From NCBI GenBank assembly GCA_938030665.1, contig CALHHY010000080.1, forward strand, positions 1-37,945: a DNA stretch of 37,945 nucleotides, read 5' to 3'. This DNA is from an uncultured Litoreibacter sp. (lineage in GTDB: Bacteria; Pseudomonadota; Alphaproteobacteria; Rhodobacterales; Rhodobacteraceae). The position numbers and the translations under genes are program-made. The first letter of the stretch is position 1, and each line of letters opens with the position of its first letter. Positions 6,489 to 13,153 of this stretch are shown here, piece after piece. Under the pieces are notes generated by a model. That model was not told the DNA's origin. It did not search any database and worked only from the letters and a program-made list of their open reading frames with translations.

Positions 6489-7598
6489 TCAGGCAGTCTC
6501 TGTCGTGAAGTCTGACCCAAGCGCGGTTTCGATCAACTCGCAATCAGGGGTCGCGTCCACATAGCGTGTCTTGAGGAATGGCGGCAGCACAAAGGCATCG
6601 CCCGCTTGCAGGCGGTAGGGTTCCTCGCCCGTGACTTCGAGCGTTAGACCGCCCTCTTTGACGAAGGTAAACAGGATGTCGGTGTCGTGGCTGGTCCATG
6701 CACCATCCGCCTGTTTGGGCCGTGCGACATGCACGCCCGCCACGCCTTGGGTCGCTGTCCCGATCCCTGTGTCGCGGCTTTCCCATCCGGGGATGCGCCA
6801 GGGGGTCCATGTGGCCTCTGCCGCTTTGTGATGGATAAACCGTGTGCCGTCCCAATCACGATCCGGTTCAAAACGGCCTGTGGGCAGTTCCATGTCATGA
6901 TCGATGGTGGTGATATGCTCTGCCGGAACCCCGATTTCGAGAACCTCGACATTGTCCGACGCCTCCAGCACGCGGTGACGGATTTGCGGCGGCTGGATCA
7001 CGCAATTGCCGGCCTCAAGAATGAAGGGATCGCCCTGATCCTCGTACACCAGCCGCACCCAGCCGCGATAACAAAAGATCAGCTGAAACCCAACGGTGTG
7101 GTAATGCACCATGTCCGGCACGGGGCCACCGTCCGGAATGCGGATATGACTGGCAATGATCGACCCGCCCAAACGGTCGGGGATTAGATCGCGGTAACGC
7201 ATGCCTGCGCGCCCGATCACCCAGGAATCGCTGTCCACCAGACGGCGCACCATGAACGAATGCTGCGTTTCGGGCATATCGAGGGGCGGGTTGGCGTCAA
7301 CAATCTCGATCACGTTGCCACTGGGAGAGGTCAGCGTGCCCTGCCCCTCTGCAAAGCCATCAGGATCATCGCACCGCAGGCGCAGCTTGCCCGGAGCGAC
7401 CTGTGCATCGCGGTCCAGCCGGATGCGCACCCCATGCCCCGAAATCAGAGCAACGGCGGGATCATCGGCGGGGAAAATCTCTTCCAGACGGAAACCAAGC
7501 TGGCCCAGAAAGAACGGCATCTCGGTCTTGAGATCATCCACTGGCAAATAGACTTCGGACGCCCTGATACTGTCCGTCTTGGGGGCCTGATCTTTCAT
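6489..7598 (-). CDS. VOC (glyoxalase-like) - cupin - cupin fusion protein
   Basis: Cytosolic protein of 369 residues with three beta-barrel-type parts. Residues ~10-100 look like one VOC/glyoxalase module (ASEVYLPVDDLKTEMPFFLG, then GHGVRIRLDR and SPSGNVIEIVD). A first cupin follows at ~165-250, with VHYHTVGFQLIFCYRGWVRL and a Pro-rich return motif ending in IRHRV. A second, weaker cupin spans ~285-365 and lacks an obvious HxH. The metal site is most credible in the first cupin. ATG 7598 is chosen over an upstream in-frame ATG at 7751 because AGGAGA lies 8-9 bp before it and the longer version would run into glpD. It is divergent from glpD by 141 bp and convergent with the alcohol dehydrogenase. 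I cannot assign a reaction; a dioxygenase-like or sugar/keto-acid binding role is open. Confidence 0.75.
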   Translation of the reverse strand: MKDQAPKTDSIRASEVYLPVDDLKTEMPFFLGQLGFRLEEIFPADDPAVALISGHGVRIRLDRDAQVAPGKLRLRCDDPDGFAEGQGTLTSPSGNVIEIVDANPPLDMPETQHSFMVRRLVDSDSWVIGRAGMRYRDLIPDRLGGSIIASHIRIPDGGPVPDMVHYHTVGFQLIFCYRGWVRLVYEDQGDPFILEAGNCVIQPPQIRHRVLEASDNVEVLEIGVPAEHITTIDHDMELPTGRFEPDRDWDGTRFIHHKAAEATWTPWRIPGWESRDTGIGTATQGVAGVHVARPKQADGAWTSHDTDILFTFVKEGGLTLEVTGEEPYRLQAGDAFVLPPFLKTRYVDATPDCELIETALGSDFTTETA

Positions 7599-7667
7599 GA
7601 CGTCTCTCCTGTCCAGCTTGGGGCAAATCCTAGGCCCGTGCAGCATAATGTGCAACGCGCCGCAAAC

Positions 7668-7688
7668 GGCAGGGGGTTTGCCCCTGCC
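7668..7688. promoter_or_regulatory. Hairpin in the glpD / cupin divergent region
   Basis: The perfect 8-bp inverted repeat GGCAGGGG / CCCCTGCC with loop GTTTG lies 52 bp before the glpD start. No T-run follows on either strand, so it is not an intrinsic terminator. It would fall in the glpD leader or act as an operator; no regulator for it is visible here. Confidence 0.3.
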
Positions 7689-7739
7689 CTGCGTCTGCAC
7701 TATGTCAGCGGTAACAGTCTCAACCGAAAGCGGCCTGAC

Positions 7740-9329
7740 GTGTCCTCTCAAGACCCATATGACCTTTTTATCATTGGCGGTGGCATCAATGGCTGCGGCA
7801 TTGCGCGCGACGCGGCGGGCCGCGGGCTGACTGTCGCGCTGGCAGAGATGAACGATCTGGGGTCCGCGACCTCATCTGCCTCTACCAAGCTGTTTCACGG
7901 CGGGTTGCGATATCTTGAGTATTTCGAGCTGAAGCTGGTGCGTCATGCCTTGCAGGAACGCGAGGTCCTTTGGGCCGCCTCACCGCATATCTCTTGGCCG
8001 ATGCGCTTTGTGGTGCCCTACCATGCCGAGGCGGAATTCGAGACGGACACGCCCGCATCGCGCATTCTGAACATACTGATGCCCTGGAACAAAGGGCGCC
8101 GCCCCGCGTGGCTGATCCGCTTTGGTCTGTTCCTCTATGACAATCTGGGTGGGCGGAAACTGCTGCCTGCCACCAAAACCATCAGCCTGAAGGACACACC
8201 CGAAGGTGCCCCGCTGCAGCCGCAGTTCGAAAAGGCATTCGAGTATTCTGATTGCTGGGTCGAAGACTCGCGGCTGGTCGCACTCAACGCGCAGGACGCC
8301 GCTGAACGGGGGGCCAGGATCATGGTGCACACCAAAGTCACCTCCGCCGCCTGCGAGGACGGCCTTTGGCGTATTACCATCGAGGACGCCCAAGGCACCC
8401 GCGATATCCAAGCACGCATGCTGGTCAATGCAGGCGGCCCATGGGTCGGCGATATCATCCAGCAAAAGGTGCGTATCAACTCGACCGAAGGGGTGCGGCT
8501 GGTGCGTGGCAGTCACATCGTCACGCCGCGCCTTTATGACCACGACAAATGCTACTTCTTTCAGGGCGGCGACGGGCGCATCATCTTTGCCATTCCTTAC
8601 GAGACGGACTTTACGCTGATCGGCACCACAGACGCAGACCATGCAGACCCCGATACACGGCCCACCTGCACCCCGGAGGAGCAATCCTATCTGCTGGATT
8701 TTGCCAACGGCTATTTCAAACAACAGCTGACGGATGCCGATGTGGTCTGGACCTATTCAGGGGTGCGGCCGCTTTATGACGACGGGGCCTCATCCGCGGC
8801 CTCGGCCACCCGTGACTATACGCTCAAGGTGGAGACATCAGGCGGCGCGCCAATCCTCAACATCTTTGGCGGCAAGATCACGACCTACCGCAAACTGGCC
8901 GAAGATGCCCTAGACAAGATCGCCAGGCATCTGCCCGACGTCGCAGACCATTGGACCGCAGGTGTCGCCATGCCCGGCGGCGATTTTGCGGTGACAGAGG
9001 TTGCCGCCAAGATCACCCAGCTGGCGGGAGACTATCCGTTCCTCACCCAGACATGGGCGCGCCGGATGATCCGCGCCTATGGCACCAACGCATGGCATAT
9101 CCTTGGCGATGCAAAGACCGCGACCGATCTGGGCCGCGACTTTGGCGCGACCCTCAGCGAGGCCGAAGTGCGCTGGCTGATGACGCATGAGTTCGCGCGT
9201 CACGCCGAAGACGTGGTCTGGCGACGCTCCAAACTGGGGCTGCGGCTAGACGCGGATGAGGTGGCCGCGCTTGAGGACTGGATGACCTCGGCCCATACTA
9301 GGCCCGCAACGAAAGGCCCTGCGACATGA
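7740..9329 (+). CDS. glpD: Glycerol-3-phosphate dehydrogenase (quinone-linked)
   Basis: Membrane-associated FAD enzyme oxidising glycerol-3-phosphate to dihydroxyacetone phosphate and feeding electrons to quinone; 529 residues. The N-terminal FAD-binding motif [19 protein letters not shown] starts at residue 8. [23 protein letters not shown], the [11 protein letters not shown] region and [13 protein letters not shown] are typical of GlpD. A GTG at 7740 is the only sensible start: the open frame reaches back to 7260, but that part is the antisense of the cupin gene and unlike GlpD. A weak GAAAG lies upstream. Its stop overlaps the glpK start (ATGA), so the two are coupled. No glpF or glpR is visible in the window. 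Confidence 0.95.
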
Positions 9330-10951: not shown

Positions 10952-11028
10952 TGGCGACCCCGGCAGGAATCGAACCTGCAACCTGCCCCTTAGGAGGGGG
11001 CTGCTCTATCCAGTTGAGCCACGGGGCC
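10952..11028 (-). tRNA. tRNA-Arg (anticodon CCU)
   Basis: A complete 77-nt cloverleaf with encoded CCA. Acceptor GGCCCCG pairs with CGGGGTC (one G-U), D-arm GCTC/GAGC, anticodon stem GCCCC/GGGGC with loop CTCCTAA (anticodon CCT), T-arm GCAGG-TTCGATT-CCTGC, discriminator G. It decodes AGG. The 40 bases upstream on the minus strand lack a convincing promoter, and an intrinsic terminator sits just beyond them. Confidence 0.97.
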
Positions 11029-11068
11029 ATTAAGGCCCGTTTTGAGGGTTTCGCGGCCGGCAGGCAAC

Positions 11069-11106
11069 AAAAAAGGGGATGTGCGAATTGGCCCATGCAC
11101 ATCCCC
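11069..11106 (-). terminator. Intrinsic terminator on the minus strand, upstream of tRNA-Arg
   Basis: A perfect 10-bp stem (GGGGATGTGC / GCACATCCCC) with a 12-nt loop is followed on the minus strand by TTTTTT and then GTT. On the plus strand there is no T-run. No protein gene on the minus strand ends here, so it appears to terminate a short non-coding transcript. Confidence 0.8.
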
Positions 11107-11154
11107 CTCTCTTGGATTGCGCGGCACAAAGACCGGGCAATGCCGCAAACTGTT
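11069..11154 (-). ncRNA. Candidate small RNA (~85 nt), divergent from the lacI-family gene
   Basis: Predicted from architecture. A minus-strand sigma70-type promoter (-35 TTGTCC, 17-bp spacer, -10 TATGAT, 11161-11189) points to a start near 11154. A 5' hairpin (GCGGCA / TGCCGC, 11121-11146) comes first, then an unpaired linker containing CCAAGAGAG, then the intrinsic terminator at 11069-11106. No open reading frame with a ribosome site is seen inside. A LacI-type operator overlaps the -10 and the start, so the adjacent regulator probably represses it. The alternative is that this is an attenuated leader of the downstream tRNA-Arg. I do not recognise it as a known RNA family. Confidence 0.5.
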
Positions 11155-11164
11155 AGCGCTATCA
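11151..11164. promoter_or_regulatory. LacI/GntR-type operator palindrome
   Basis: TGTTAGCGCTATCA is a 14-bp palindrome with 6 of 7 pairs matching and the central CG typical of LacI-family sites; it resembles E. coli GntR-type operators. It overlaps the -10 box and predicted start of the minus-strand small RNA and lies 78 bp before the start of the LacI-family gene at 11243. Confidence 0.6.
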
Positions 11165-11189
11165 TAGAGACCAAATCCGGTTTGGACAA
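11161..11189 (-). promoter_or_regulatory. Sigma70-type promoter for the candidate small RNA
   Basis: On the minus strand TTGTCC (11189-11184) and TATGAT (11166-11161) are separated by exactly 17 bp. Both hexamers match consensus in at least four of six positions. It drives transcription away from the lacI-family gene toward the terminator at 11069. Confidence 0.55.
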
Positions 11190-11242
11190 CCCTGTCGATA
11201 GGCGCTACGCTGAAGGCCCTGAATTCTGCGAAAGCCGCGTCT

Positions 11243-12274
11243 TTGACCAGTCGATCTGACCCAGATTACCGACCACAACTGACCTTGAGGGACGTGTCTG
11301 AAGTGTCAGGCGTCTCGGAAATGACGGTCAGCCGGGTTTTGCGAAACCGGGGGGAAGTGTCTGAAAAAACACGCGAAAAAGTACTCAAAGCCGCGCGTGA
11401 GCTGGGGTATGTGCCCAACAAGATCGCAGGCGCCCTGGCGTCCAACCGCGTCAATCTGGTGGGCGTTATCATCCCATCGCTGTCCAACATGGTATTCCCC
11501 GAGGTGATGATGGGAATTTCATCCGTGCTGGATGAGACGCCACTGCAGCCCGTCGTGGGTGTCACCGGGTATGAGCCGGAGAAAGAGGAAAGGGTCATCT
11601 TCGAGATGCTCTCCTGGCGGCCAAGCGGACTGATTGTGGCCGGGCTTGAGCACACCGATGCAGCCCGCAAGATGATGGAAAATGCCAGCGTTCCGGTGGT
11701 CGAGATCATGGATGTCGACGGCGATGCCGTCGATGCCTGCGTGGGTATTAGCCACCAACGGGCGGGCAGGCAAACGGCGACAGAAATCCTGAAACGTGGC
11801 TACCGTCGGATCGGTTTTCTTGGCACAAAAATGCCACTCGATCACCGGGCACGGAAACGGTTCGAGGGGTTCCAATCCGTCCTTACAGAGGCAGGGCTTG
11901 GGTTAATCGACCAGGAATATTACTCCGGCGGTTCGGCACTGGCCAAGGGAAGGGAGATGACCGAAGCCATTCTGAACCGCAATGACGACCTGGATTTTCT
12001 TTATTATTCCAATGACATGATCGGTGCGGGTGGGCTGCTTTACTGCCTTGAGAAAGGCATCTCAGTTCCCGGCGATGTCGGCCTTGCTGGCTTTAATGGG
12101 GTTGAGCTGATCGATGGTCTGCCGCGCAAGCTTGCGACCATGGACAGCTGCCGGGGCGAGATCGGGACCAAGGCCGCCCAGATGATCGTCGCCGCGCTTG
12201 AGAAGACAAAAGAGGCAGCGCCAAAAAGGATCGAAATCTCCCCCATTTTTGCGGCAGGTGACACGGTTCGCTAG
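11243..12274 (+). CDS. LacI-family transcriptional regulator, GntR (gluconate repressor)-like
   Basis: DNA-binding repressor of 343 residues. The N-terminal helix-turn-helix TLRDVSEVSGVSEMTVSRVL (14-33) and hinge region GYVPNKIAGALASNR are canonical. The effector domain has IPSLSNMVFPEVMMGI and EMLSWRPSGLI, which closely echo the E. coli gluconate repressor GntR rather than LacI or PurR. The start is taken as TTG 11243, because no in-frame ATG or GTG lies between it and the stop codon at 11165; the ribosome site is weak. No sugar-acid genes flank it, so its regulon is not local, except for an operator-like palindrome at 11151-11164 over the divergent small-RNA promoter. The effector is unknown; gluconate or a related sugar acid is inferred by similarity. 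Confidence 0.85.
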   Translation: MTSRSDPDYRPQLTLRDVSEVSGVSEMTVSRVLRNRGEVSEKTREKVLKAARELGYVPNKIAGALASNRVNLVGVIIPSLSNMVFPEVMMGISSVLDETPLQPVVGVTGYEPEKEERVIFEMLSWRPSGLIVAGLEHTDAARKMMENASVPVVEIMDVDGDAVDACVGISHQRAGRQTATEILKRGYRRIGFLGTKMPLDHRARKRFEGFQSVLTEAGLGLIDQEYYSGGSALAKGREMTEAILNRNDDLDFLYYSNDMIGAGGLLYCLEKGISVPGDVGLAGFNGVELIDGLPRKLATMDSCRGEIGTKAAQMIVAALEKTKEAAPKRIEISPIFAAGDTVR

Positions 12275-12376: not shown

Positions 12377-13153
12377 ATGACAGATAGCGCAGGTCGCGTA
12401 GCGGGAGATATTCTTGACGCTGCGATGCCATTTCTGCGCCGGTACGGACGTGCCTTGACCCGTTGCCAGAAGGCAGGCGACAGCTTGGCCATACGGGCGC
12501 GACAGGATACGCGGCGTACGATCTCAGTGATTTCCGCGAAAGAAATCCGCATTTCCCTGTTTCGATCGTTGCATGGCGCCTGGACCAGCCCGTCGGCCAT
12601 CCTGCTCAGCATTGCGGCGGCCCGAAAACGGGTGGAGCAACTGACCCCCGGCGCGCTGGAAACGCTGCTGTTACGCGCCATTGAGGAGTTTTCCTTTGGC
12701 GAAATCGGCACCATCCTGCATCGCAGCGAGGCCGAGGCCTCTGAACTTTTCGAAATCGCCCTGAGGGAACGACCCTATCAGCGCGGCAAGAAGGTTCTGA
12801 TTATCGAGGATGACGCGTTGATCGCCATGGACATCGCCAATTGCATTTCAGAAATGGGCGGCATCATTACCGGCGTTGCCCGCACCGCCACCCAAGCGGT
12901 GGAGCTGGCTGGCACCTACATGCCGCAAATGATCCTGACGAGTCCGGTCCTTGCAGACCGGTCTTCCGGGTTGGAAGCCGCCAAGACCATATCCGCCGGC
13001 AAGGGTGGGATTGACGTGGTGGTAGTCAGCCCCGACCCGCAGACCCTGCTTCAAGGCGAGCCGGCTGAGCCGCTATTTGTGCTCGAAAAACCCTACCTGG
13101 AAGACCAGGTGCGCAGCGCTGTCCGACAGGCCTTCATCCTCAGCCAAAGCTAG
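12377..13153 (+). CDS. PhyR-like protein (sigma-like domain plus degenerate receiver)
   Basis: 258 residues with the architecture of PhyR, the anti-anti-sigma factor of the alphaproteobacterial general stress response. Residues ~10-132 are an ECF-sigma-like domain (LTPGALETLLLRAIEEFSFGEIG) and ~138-255 a receiver domain. In active PhyR, the sequestration of NepR needs phosphorylation of an aspartate in the LADIQLADGSSG motif. Here the equivalent is LTSPVLADRSSG, with Ser189 in place of that aspartate. The acidic pair in IIEDD (144-146) and Lys238 in EKPY are kept, and the switch Thr is Ser218. It may be phosphorylation-independent or act as a decoy. No nepR, ecfG or phyK gene is visible nearby. 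Its stop overlaps the stop of a convergent small gene. Confidence 0.8.
   Translation: MTDSAGRVAGDILDAAMPFLRRYGRALTRCQKAGDSLAIRARQDTRRTISVISAKEIRISLFRSLHGAWTSPSAILLSIAAARKRVEQLTPGALETLLLRAIEEFSFGEIGTILHRSEAEASELFEIALRERPYQRGKKVLIIEDDALIAMDIANCISEMGGIITGVARTATQAVELAGTYMPQMILTSPVLADRSSGLEAAKTISAGKGGIDVVVVSPDPQTLLQGEPAEPLFVLEKPYLEDQVRSAVRQAFILSQS

What the first reader, a model, noticed from the sequence alone, without database searches (positions are those of the whole stretch)
11069..11189. A possible undescribed small RNA under LacI-type repression
Between tRNA-Arg and the lacI-family gene the minus strand has, in order, TTGTCC-N17-TATGAT, a LacI-type palindrome over the -10/start, a 5' hairpin, and a 10-bp-stem terminator with T6. 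No protein gene uses this terminator. The whole unit is about 85 nt, divergent from its likely regulator. This is a coherent transcription unit that no protein or known RNA explains. The alternative is a leader for the tRNA.
Basis: partly seen in the sequence, partly recalled or inferred. Interest (0 to 1): 0.75.

Follow-up and report, generated by a model that had tools for sequence, protein, structure and literature searches.

The report
Sugar-repressor-controlled small RNA gene
Next to the gene for the likely master switch of sugar metabolism (CceR) in this bacterium and some relatives lies a small gene that appears to make a short non-coding RNA, with that switch's binding site sitting on its promoter, so the switch probably also controls a hidden RNA regulator.

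Summary
On the minus strand (11189-11069) lie a promoter, a LacI-type operator over its -10, a 5' hairpin and a terminator (10-bp stem, 12-nt loop, T6). The predicted RNA is about 87 nt. The adjacent lacI gene is most likely cceR (gapR), regulator of central carbon metabolism: the other three operators found in this genome lie upstream of gap, edd and zwf. A covariance model of the terminator found strong matches in 49 of 394 family genomes; in 47 of 49 the operator scores at least 12/16 and in 47 of 49 a cceR-like gene lies divergent beside it. GGGCCAA in the terminator loop is present in all 49 and the stem covaries. No ORF is conserved; no Rfam sRNA family matches. In 14 of 49 no tRNA lies directly downstream, so it is not a tRNA leader. 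Best explanation: a CceR-repressed, probably base-pairing sRNA made when sugar is used. Transcription, repression, Hfq binding and targets are not shown; my target searches failed. A 2014 paper read a site upstream of this regulator in five genomes as autoregulation.

The parts
11184..11189 (-). -35 hexamer TTGTCC of the sRNA promoter; it overlaps a TTGGAC on the + strand that may serve cceR
   Evidence: CTTGTCCAAG is the majority word at this place in the 49 loci
11161..11166 (-). -10 hexamer TATGAT (TATGTT in most relatives)
11151..11164 (.). CceR/LacI-type operator TGATAGCGCTAACA over -10 and start
   Evidence: 4 sites in the genome, 0 control; 15 of 15 sRNA loci at 13/16 or more; background 2 in 1,312,712 positions
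11068..11154 (-). predicted sRNA, about 87 nt, start inferred from the -10
11114..11144 (-). 5' hairpin, sequence not conserved outside close kin
11075..11106 (-). intrinsic terminator hairpin, 10-bp stem with covariation, 12-nt loop
11088..11095 (-). conserved loop TGGGCCAA, candidate recognition element
   Evidence: GGGCCAA in 49 of 49, TGGGCCAA in 45 of 49
11069..11074 (-). T6 run of the terminator
11243..12274 (+). cceR (gapR), inferred: LacI-family regulator of central carbon metabolism, divergent
   Evidence: regulon sites; match in 334 of 394 family genomes at E <= 1e-100
11182..11211 (+). possible cceR promoter TTGGAC-N18-TACGCT, back to back with the sRNA promoter
   Evidence: sequence; inference
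10952..11028 (-). tRNA-Arg(CCT), 40 nt downstream, separate unit

Best explanation
The element is a small non-coding RNA gene under direct repression by CceR. Without sugar flux, CceR sits on the operator over the -10/start and blocks it together with zwf, edd and gap. When 6-phosphogluconate rises, CceR lets go and an RNA of about 87 nt is made, ending at its own terminator. The conserved terminator loop (UGGGCCAA) and, in many relatives but not in this genome, a second conserved loop (UGCAAGCUCUC) probably pair with mRNAs, perhaps with Hfq, and most plausibly damp gluconeogenic, TCA or organic-acid functions. Shown by sequence: the anatomy, its conservation, its linkage to cceR and the operator. 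Inferred: transcription, repression, inducer response. Hypothesis: base pairing, Hfq, targets.
For: Terminator model R1 gave matches at E <= 1.8e-4 in 49 of 394 family genomes, one such copy each. Operator at 12/16 or more in 47 of 49; L097 and L107 scored 11 and 10 in my scan (which took another site) but carry GATAGCGCTAACG at the expected place. A divergent cceR match in 47 of 49 fetched stretches, one of them (L115) only 46.5% identical. Exceptions: L112 keeps operator and tRNA without cceR beside it (its genome G330 has a match at E 1.8e-113, place not listed), and L242 lies at a contig end. The two next-weaker family hits (L244, L245) and all 11 hits outside the family in the class search have neither operator nor cceR. 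Genus: 11 of 21 genomes hold it, each with operator and cceR; the five weaker hits have neither. Stem covariation: 5 of 10 pairs changed on both sides (13 of 500 shuffles as high), 19 such cells against 6.6 (sd 2.6) in shuffles, 0 of 500 as high. Second alignment of 31: 8 of 15 predicted pairs with changes on both sides. Loop GGGCCAA in 49 of 49. 24 of 49 transcripts hold no ATG at all. Regulator: sites at zwf, edd, gap, close to the motif GTT-N6-8-AAC predicted for RSP_1663 (PMC4344238, passages).
Against: No transcript data. 334 of 394 family genomes have a cceR match but only 49 a strong sRNA match, so it is dispensable. The window copy lacks the second loop motif. No consistent target emerged from exact seed-complement searches. 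R1 was trained on 20 cceR-anchored loci; all 15 positive named loci are training members, and some of the 49 genomes share sequence with training loci (for example L098 with L040), so the counts are not fully independent. One covariation measure, further pair types, was not above shuffles (12 against 10.9, 173 of 500). Of 10 transcripts folded, L108 (z -0.21) and L118 (z -1.16) are hardly more stable than shuffles. That this LacI protein is CceR rests on regulon and motif; the R. sphaeroides protein was not aligned.
Confidence: 0.7

Rival explanations
1. Leader of tRNA-Arg(CCT): the promoter drives the tRNA and the terminator attenuates it.
For: Same strand, 40 nt apart in the window; tRNA-Arg(CCT) lies within about 200 nt downstream in 35 of the 49 loci.
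Against: In 14 of 49 sRNA loci no tRNA-Arg lies directly downstream (in one, L103, the fetched stretch ends about 200 nt on), yet promoter, operator and terminator hairpin remain. 60 of 80 cceR loci have the tRNA within 600 nt, while only 15 of 80 have the sRNA. A complete terminator separates them.
Confidence: 0.04
2. The operator serves only cceR autoregulation; the divergent transcript and terminator are by-products or an insulator.
For: Ravcheev et al. 2014 (PMC4052901, passages) report a motif upstream of gapR in five genomes and infer autoregulation. Operator and cceR start are about 80 nt apart in the window.
Against: The strong operator lies over the sRNA -10 and goes with the sRNA: 15 of 15 sRNA loci against 5 of 65 without; of these five L043 and L053 sit nearer cceR and L023, L055, L057 keep the sRNA-like promoter. 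In L112 operator and sRNA stay together without cceR beside them. A by-product would not be expected to keep an invariant loop on a covarying stem.
Confidence: 0.12
3. A non-coding RNA under CceR that acts by binding or titrating a protein, or by loop-loop dimerisation (GGCC is self-complementary), rather than by pairing with mRNAs.
For: The most conserved element is a hairpin loop; target searches found nothing consistent.
Against: No protein or dimer signature was tested. The second loop UGCAAGCUCUC could pair with GAGAG-type ribosome sites in many relatives (inference).
Confidence: 0.12
4. A small protein is encoded in the transcript.
For: Some relatives can be read as short open frames across the second loop (my reading).
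Against: 24 of 49 transcripts hold no ATG, and I see no shared peptide in the others (ATG starts only); stem lengths differ by single bases.
Confidence: 0.02

Closest known systems
CceR (GapR, RSP_1663) regulon of Rhodobacteraceae
   Same: Same regulator type, operator motif and target pathway (zwf, edd, gap); regulon and a site upstream of the regulator described by Ravcheev 2014 (PMC4052901, passages), predicted in PMC4344238 (passages); P. denitrificans CceR studied in PMC11323563 (passages). That it senses 6-phosphogluconate is stated in PMC5507952 (passages).
   Different: No small RNA target was found there: 0 occurrences of sRNA or small RNA in the main text of PMC4052901 and PMC11323563; the one sRNA mention in PMC4344238 is PcrZ.
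SgrR-SgrS of enterobacteria (recalled)
   Same: sRNA gene divergent from its own sugar-phosphate-responsive regulator.
   Different: SgrR activates and SgrS also encodes a peptide; here a LacI-type repressor and no conserved peptide seen; no sequence comparison was made.
Spot 42 (recalled)
   Same: sRNA tied to glucose status, about 100 nt, acting on carbon metabolism.
   Different: Controlled by CRP; targets here unknown; no sequence comparison beyond Rfam was made.
Known Rhodobacteraceae sRNAs (StsR, PcrZ, UpsM, Pos19, UdsC, Cis2_sRNA RF02645)
   Same: Short RNAs in the same family.
   Different: Other loci and regulators (recalled or from search listings); Rfam finds no sRNA family at this locus in the window (gathering scores) or in 7 relatives (E up to 1).

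Membership tests
CceR/GapR regulon | LacI-family regulator | tested here: met
   Pfam LacI PF00356, 68.4 bits over cutoff 27
CceR/GapR regulon | Operator motif GTT-N6-8-AAC palindrome | tested here: met
   met with one base off in the window (GAT for GTT); consensus of relatives fits fully
CceR/GapR regulon | Other operators at ED and glycolysis genes in the same genome | tested here: met
   zwf, edd, gap
CceR/GapR regulon | CceR binds and represses in vivo, released by 6-phosphogluconate | not testable with these tools
   needs gel shift and expression data
CceR/GapR regulon | Direct orthology with R. sphaeroides RSP_1663 | not tested
   that sequence was not fetched
Trans-acting base-pairing sRNA | Own promoter and intrinsic terminator with U tail | tested here: met
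   by sequence only
Trans-acting base-pairing sRNA | Conserved unpaired stretch on a conserved structure | tested here: met
Trans-acting base-pairing sRNA | mRNA targets with conserved complementarity | tested here: inconclusive
   exact seed searches, only partly read, gave no consistent gene
Trans-acting base-pairing sRNA | Hfq (or other chaperone) binding, expression | not testable with these tools
   needs RIP-seq, RNA-seq
Known Rfam RNA families | Score at or above a gathering threshold | tested here: not met
   only the tRNA in the window; in 7 relatives no sRNA family at the locus up to E 1
tRNA leader | tRNA always downstream | tested here: not met
   not directly downstream in 14 of 49

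The most novel reading that the evidence does not exclude
CceR has an ancestral RNA arm: a 6-phosphogluconate-induced sRNA with up to two independent recognition loops that switches off gluconeogenic, TCA or uptake mRNAs as sugar arrives. It was present early in the family and lost in a large Roseobacter clade. Operators that were read as cceR autoregulation may partly be the sRNA promoter.
Probability: 0.45. Interest if true: 0.75.

Novelty: new member of a known kind. Interest (0 to 1): 0.6.

Why it matters
[quoted passage not shown] A conserved RNA under its direct control could explain CceR effects that lack a binding site, and gives an sRNA family with a likely inducer, a promoter and two candidate seed loops that can be tested in cultured strains. 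In the literature library searched here no paper holds both whole words CceR and sRNA, and the titles and abstract starts listed for sRNA with Entner-Doudoroff and Rhodobacter show nothing of this kind.

Tried and rejected
Target search. Complements of the two loops were sought in 8 relatives: GAGAGCTTGCA (12 places, the sRNA genes' own included; loci not read further), TTTGGCCCACC (19 places, likewise), GAGAGCTTG within 14 nt of ATG (27 places, all read) and TTTGGCCCA within 20 nt of ATG (loci not read further). Most sites read lie within or antisense to longer frames; a few open long frames (L162, L166, L168, L270), but I saw no gene recur as a true start, so no target is claimed. The reversed-pattern control of these searches does not keep ribosome-site bias, so its lower counts are not evidence.

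Small protein: rejected (ATG starts only). tRNA leader: rejected. Known RNA family: none. Occurrence outside the family: 11 of 384 other genomes of the class draw matched at E <= 0.001, none with operator or cceR, so taken as chance. Plain DNA similarity found matches in 8 of 101 genomes including the window's own, two of which (L006, L007) looked unrelated on reading.

Dropped or weak rows: of 93 family genomes with E <= 0.01 I counted the 49 at E <= 1.8e-4; of the other 44 I fetched two (L244, L245; both false) and did not fetch the rest. L023 (promoter kept, terminator degenerate) is left out of the counts. In one search two operators (L097, L107) scored 11 and 10 of 16; the longest transcript (151 nt, L097) rests on such a misplaced operator.

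Full report
WHAT IS THERE. On the minus strand between tRNA-Arg(CCT) (10952-11028) and a LacI-family gene (11243-12274) lie TTGTCC-N17-TATGAT (11189-11161), the palindrome TGATAGCGCTAACA (11164-11151), a 5' hairpin (about 11144-11114) and a terminator with a 10-bp stem, 12-nt loop and T6 (11106-11069). Taken alone the promoter is no better than chance (2 found, 1.7 expected); the terminator scanner, limited to loops of 3-8 nt, does not list the hairpin. The fold has z -3.45.

THE REGULATOR. The operator pattern occurs at 4 places in the assembly and its control at none. The other three lie upstream of gap, edd and zwf; the zwf site has the same 14 bases as the window's. These are targets of the regulator called GapR (RSP_1663) by Ravcheev et al. 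2014 (PMC4052901, passages), for which PMC4344238 predicts GTT-N6-8-AAC (passages); that GapR and CceR are the same protein is recalled. PMC5507952 (passages) says CceR senses gluconate-6P. PMC11323563 (passages) supports CceR as repressor of glycolytic and activator of gluconeogenic enzymes in P. denitrificans. The protein is LacI-family and nearest to gluconate regulators among NCBIfam models, below their cut-offs. CceR identity is therefore well supported but not proven by direct alignment. In the window a one-mismatch operator also lies at 7703-7716, just before the likely glpD-glpK genes.

CONSERVATION. Of 80 cceR loci from named records, 60 have tRNA-Arg(CCT) within 600 nt and 15 have the terminator hairpin at E <= 1.4e-7 (these 15 are members of the model's training set, picked by motif). 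All 15 carry an operator of 13/16 or more, against 5 of 65 without the hairpin, with a background of 2 in 1,312,712 positions. The model (20 sequences) was then run over whole genomes: 93 of 394 family genomes match at E <= 0.01, 49 at E <= 1.8e-4. Inspection of those 49 (30, 18, and the window) gave an operator of 12/16 or more in 47, a divergent cceR match in 47 (L115 only 46.5% identical), and tRNA-Arg directly downstream in 35. L112 keeps operator, sRNA and tRNA without cceR beside it; its genome has a cceR match at E 1.8e-113 whose place was not listed. The next two weaker hits and 11 hits outside the family have no operator and no cceR. In the genus 11 of 21 genomes hold it. Some of these genomes share sequence with training loci, so the counts are not fully independent.

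STRUCTURE. In 20 transcripts the terminator stem shows 19 cells with changes on both sides against 6.6 in shuffles (0 of 500), and slid controls give 0 to 4; further pair types, however, are not above shuffles (173 of 500). The loop GGGCCAA is present in 49 of 49. 28 of 49 also match, by a loose pattern, a second motif around UGCAAGCUCUC. In an alignment of 31 it sits in the loop of a middle hairpin of 4 consensus pairs, three of them with changes on both sides; over both hairpins it is 8 of 15 pairs. The window and the close kin folded have another middle hairpin and lack this motif. Eight of 10 transcripts folded have z of -2.87 or lower; L108 and L118 do not. Predicted lengths run from 70 to 136 nt, leaving out L097. 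No ORF is conserved. No Rfam sRNA family matches the locus.

PROMOTER LAYOUT. CTTGTCCAAG is the majority word at -35 in the 49. It is nearly palindromic, so a TTGGAC for cceR overlaps the sRNA -35 on the other strand. I infer two back-to-back promoters. Several relatives show a second, weaker operator nearer cceR (for example L024, L025, L072), which fits separate control of cceR. The site that Ravcheev et al. reported upstream of gapR in five genomes and read as autoregulation may in part be the sRNA operator; I did not check which genomes those were.

HISTORY. On a cceR tree of 81 rows the presence of the sRNA needs 6 changes against 14.8 in shuffles (0 of 500 as low). It occurs in several separate groups, and a branch of 42 rows (Roseovarius, Ruegeria, Leisingera, Marivita, Salipiger and kin) has none. 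This fits one early origin with losses, but the root is not inferred and gain and loss cannot be told apart by the count. The tree is a quick one with 28 weak branches of 78.

FUNCTION. The most likely reading is a sugar-induced, CceR-repressed trans-acting sRNA. Steps shown by sequence: anatomy, conservation, linkage. Steps inferred: transcription, repression, induction. The base-pairing role is a hypothesis, since exact seed searches gave no consistent target. Protein binding or loop dimerisation is not excluded.

NOVELTY. Full-text searches found no paper with both whole words CceR and sRNA, 6 with CceR and Rhodobacter, 2 with RSP_1663, and, judged from listings, nothing fitting for sRNA with Entner-Doudoroff, tRNA-Arg, glucose or LacI-type terms or for sRNAs of the family. 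Of the P. denitrificans sRNA paper PMC5107571 I saw passages and one section; its supplementary list of 167 sRNAs could not be read. The main CceR paper (Imam et al. 2015) was not held. An unnamed entry in such lists is therefore possible. I rate it a new member of a known kind (bacterial sRNA under a metabolic repressor).

Noticed in passing
window 7703-7716: TGTCAGCGGTAACA, a one-mismatch CceR-type operator, lies about 24 nt before an in-frame GTG of the ORF 7260-9329, which looks like glpD (my reading; glpK-like FGGY kinase follows), with TATGTC at the -10 place as in the sRNA promoter; glycerol catabolism may be in the regulon here.
   Followed up: partly
window 11062-11067: TTGCCT right after the sRNA terminator may be the -35 of a separate tRNA-Arg promoter; the same word recurs near this place in relatives without the sRNA (L013, L014).
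   Followed up: partly
window 12377-13153: PhyR-like anti-anti-sigma response regulator downstream of cceR (Pfam PhyR_sigma2, PhyR_sigma-like and Response_reg above cut-off; NCBIfam below cut-off).
   Followed up: no
L055 and L057 (Celeribacter), upstream of cceR: The sRNA-like promoter and operator are kept but the conserved terminator is not; perhaps a diverged or decaying sRNA.
   Followed up: no
L070, L120, L125, L238: A different shared motif GTGTAGACTCCGATC stands where others have the UGCAAGCUCUC loop.
   Followed up: no
L120:2843-2989: Match to Rfam Cis2_sRNA (RF02645) about 1.3 kb from the sRNA, on the far side of cceR.
   Followed up: no
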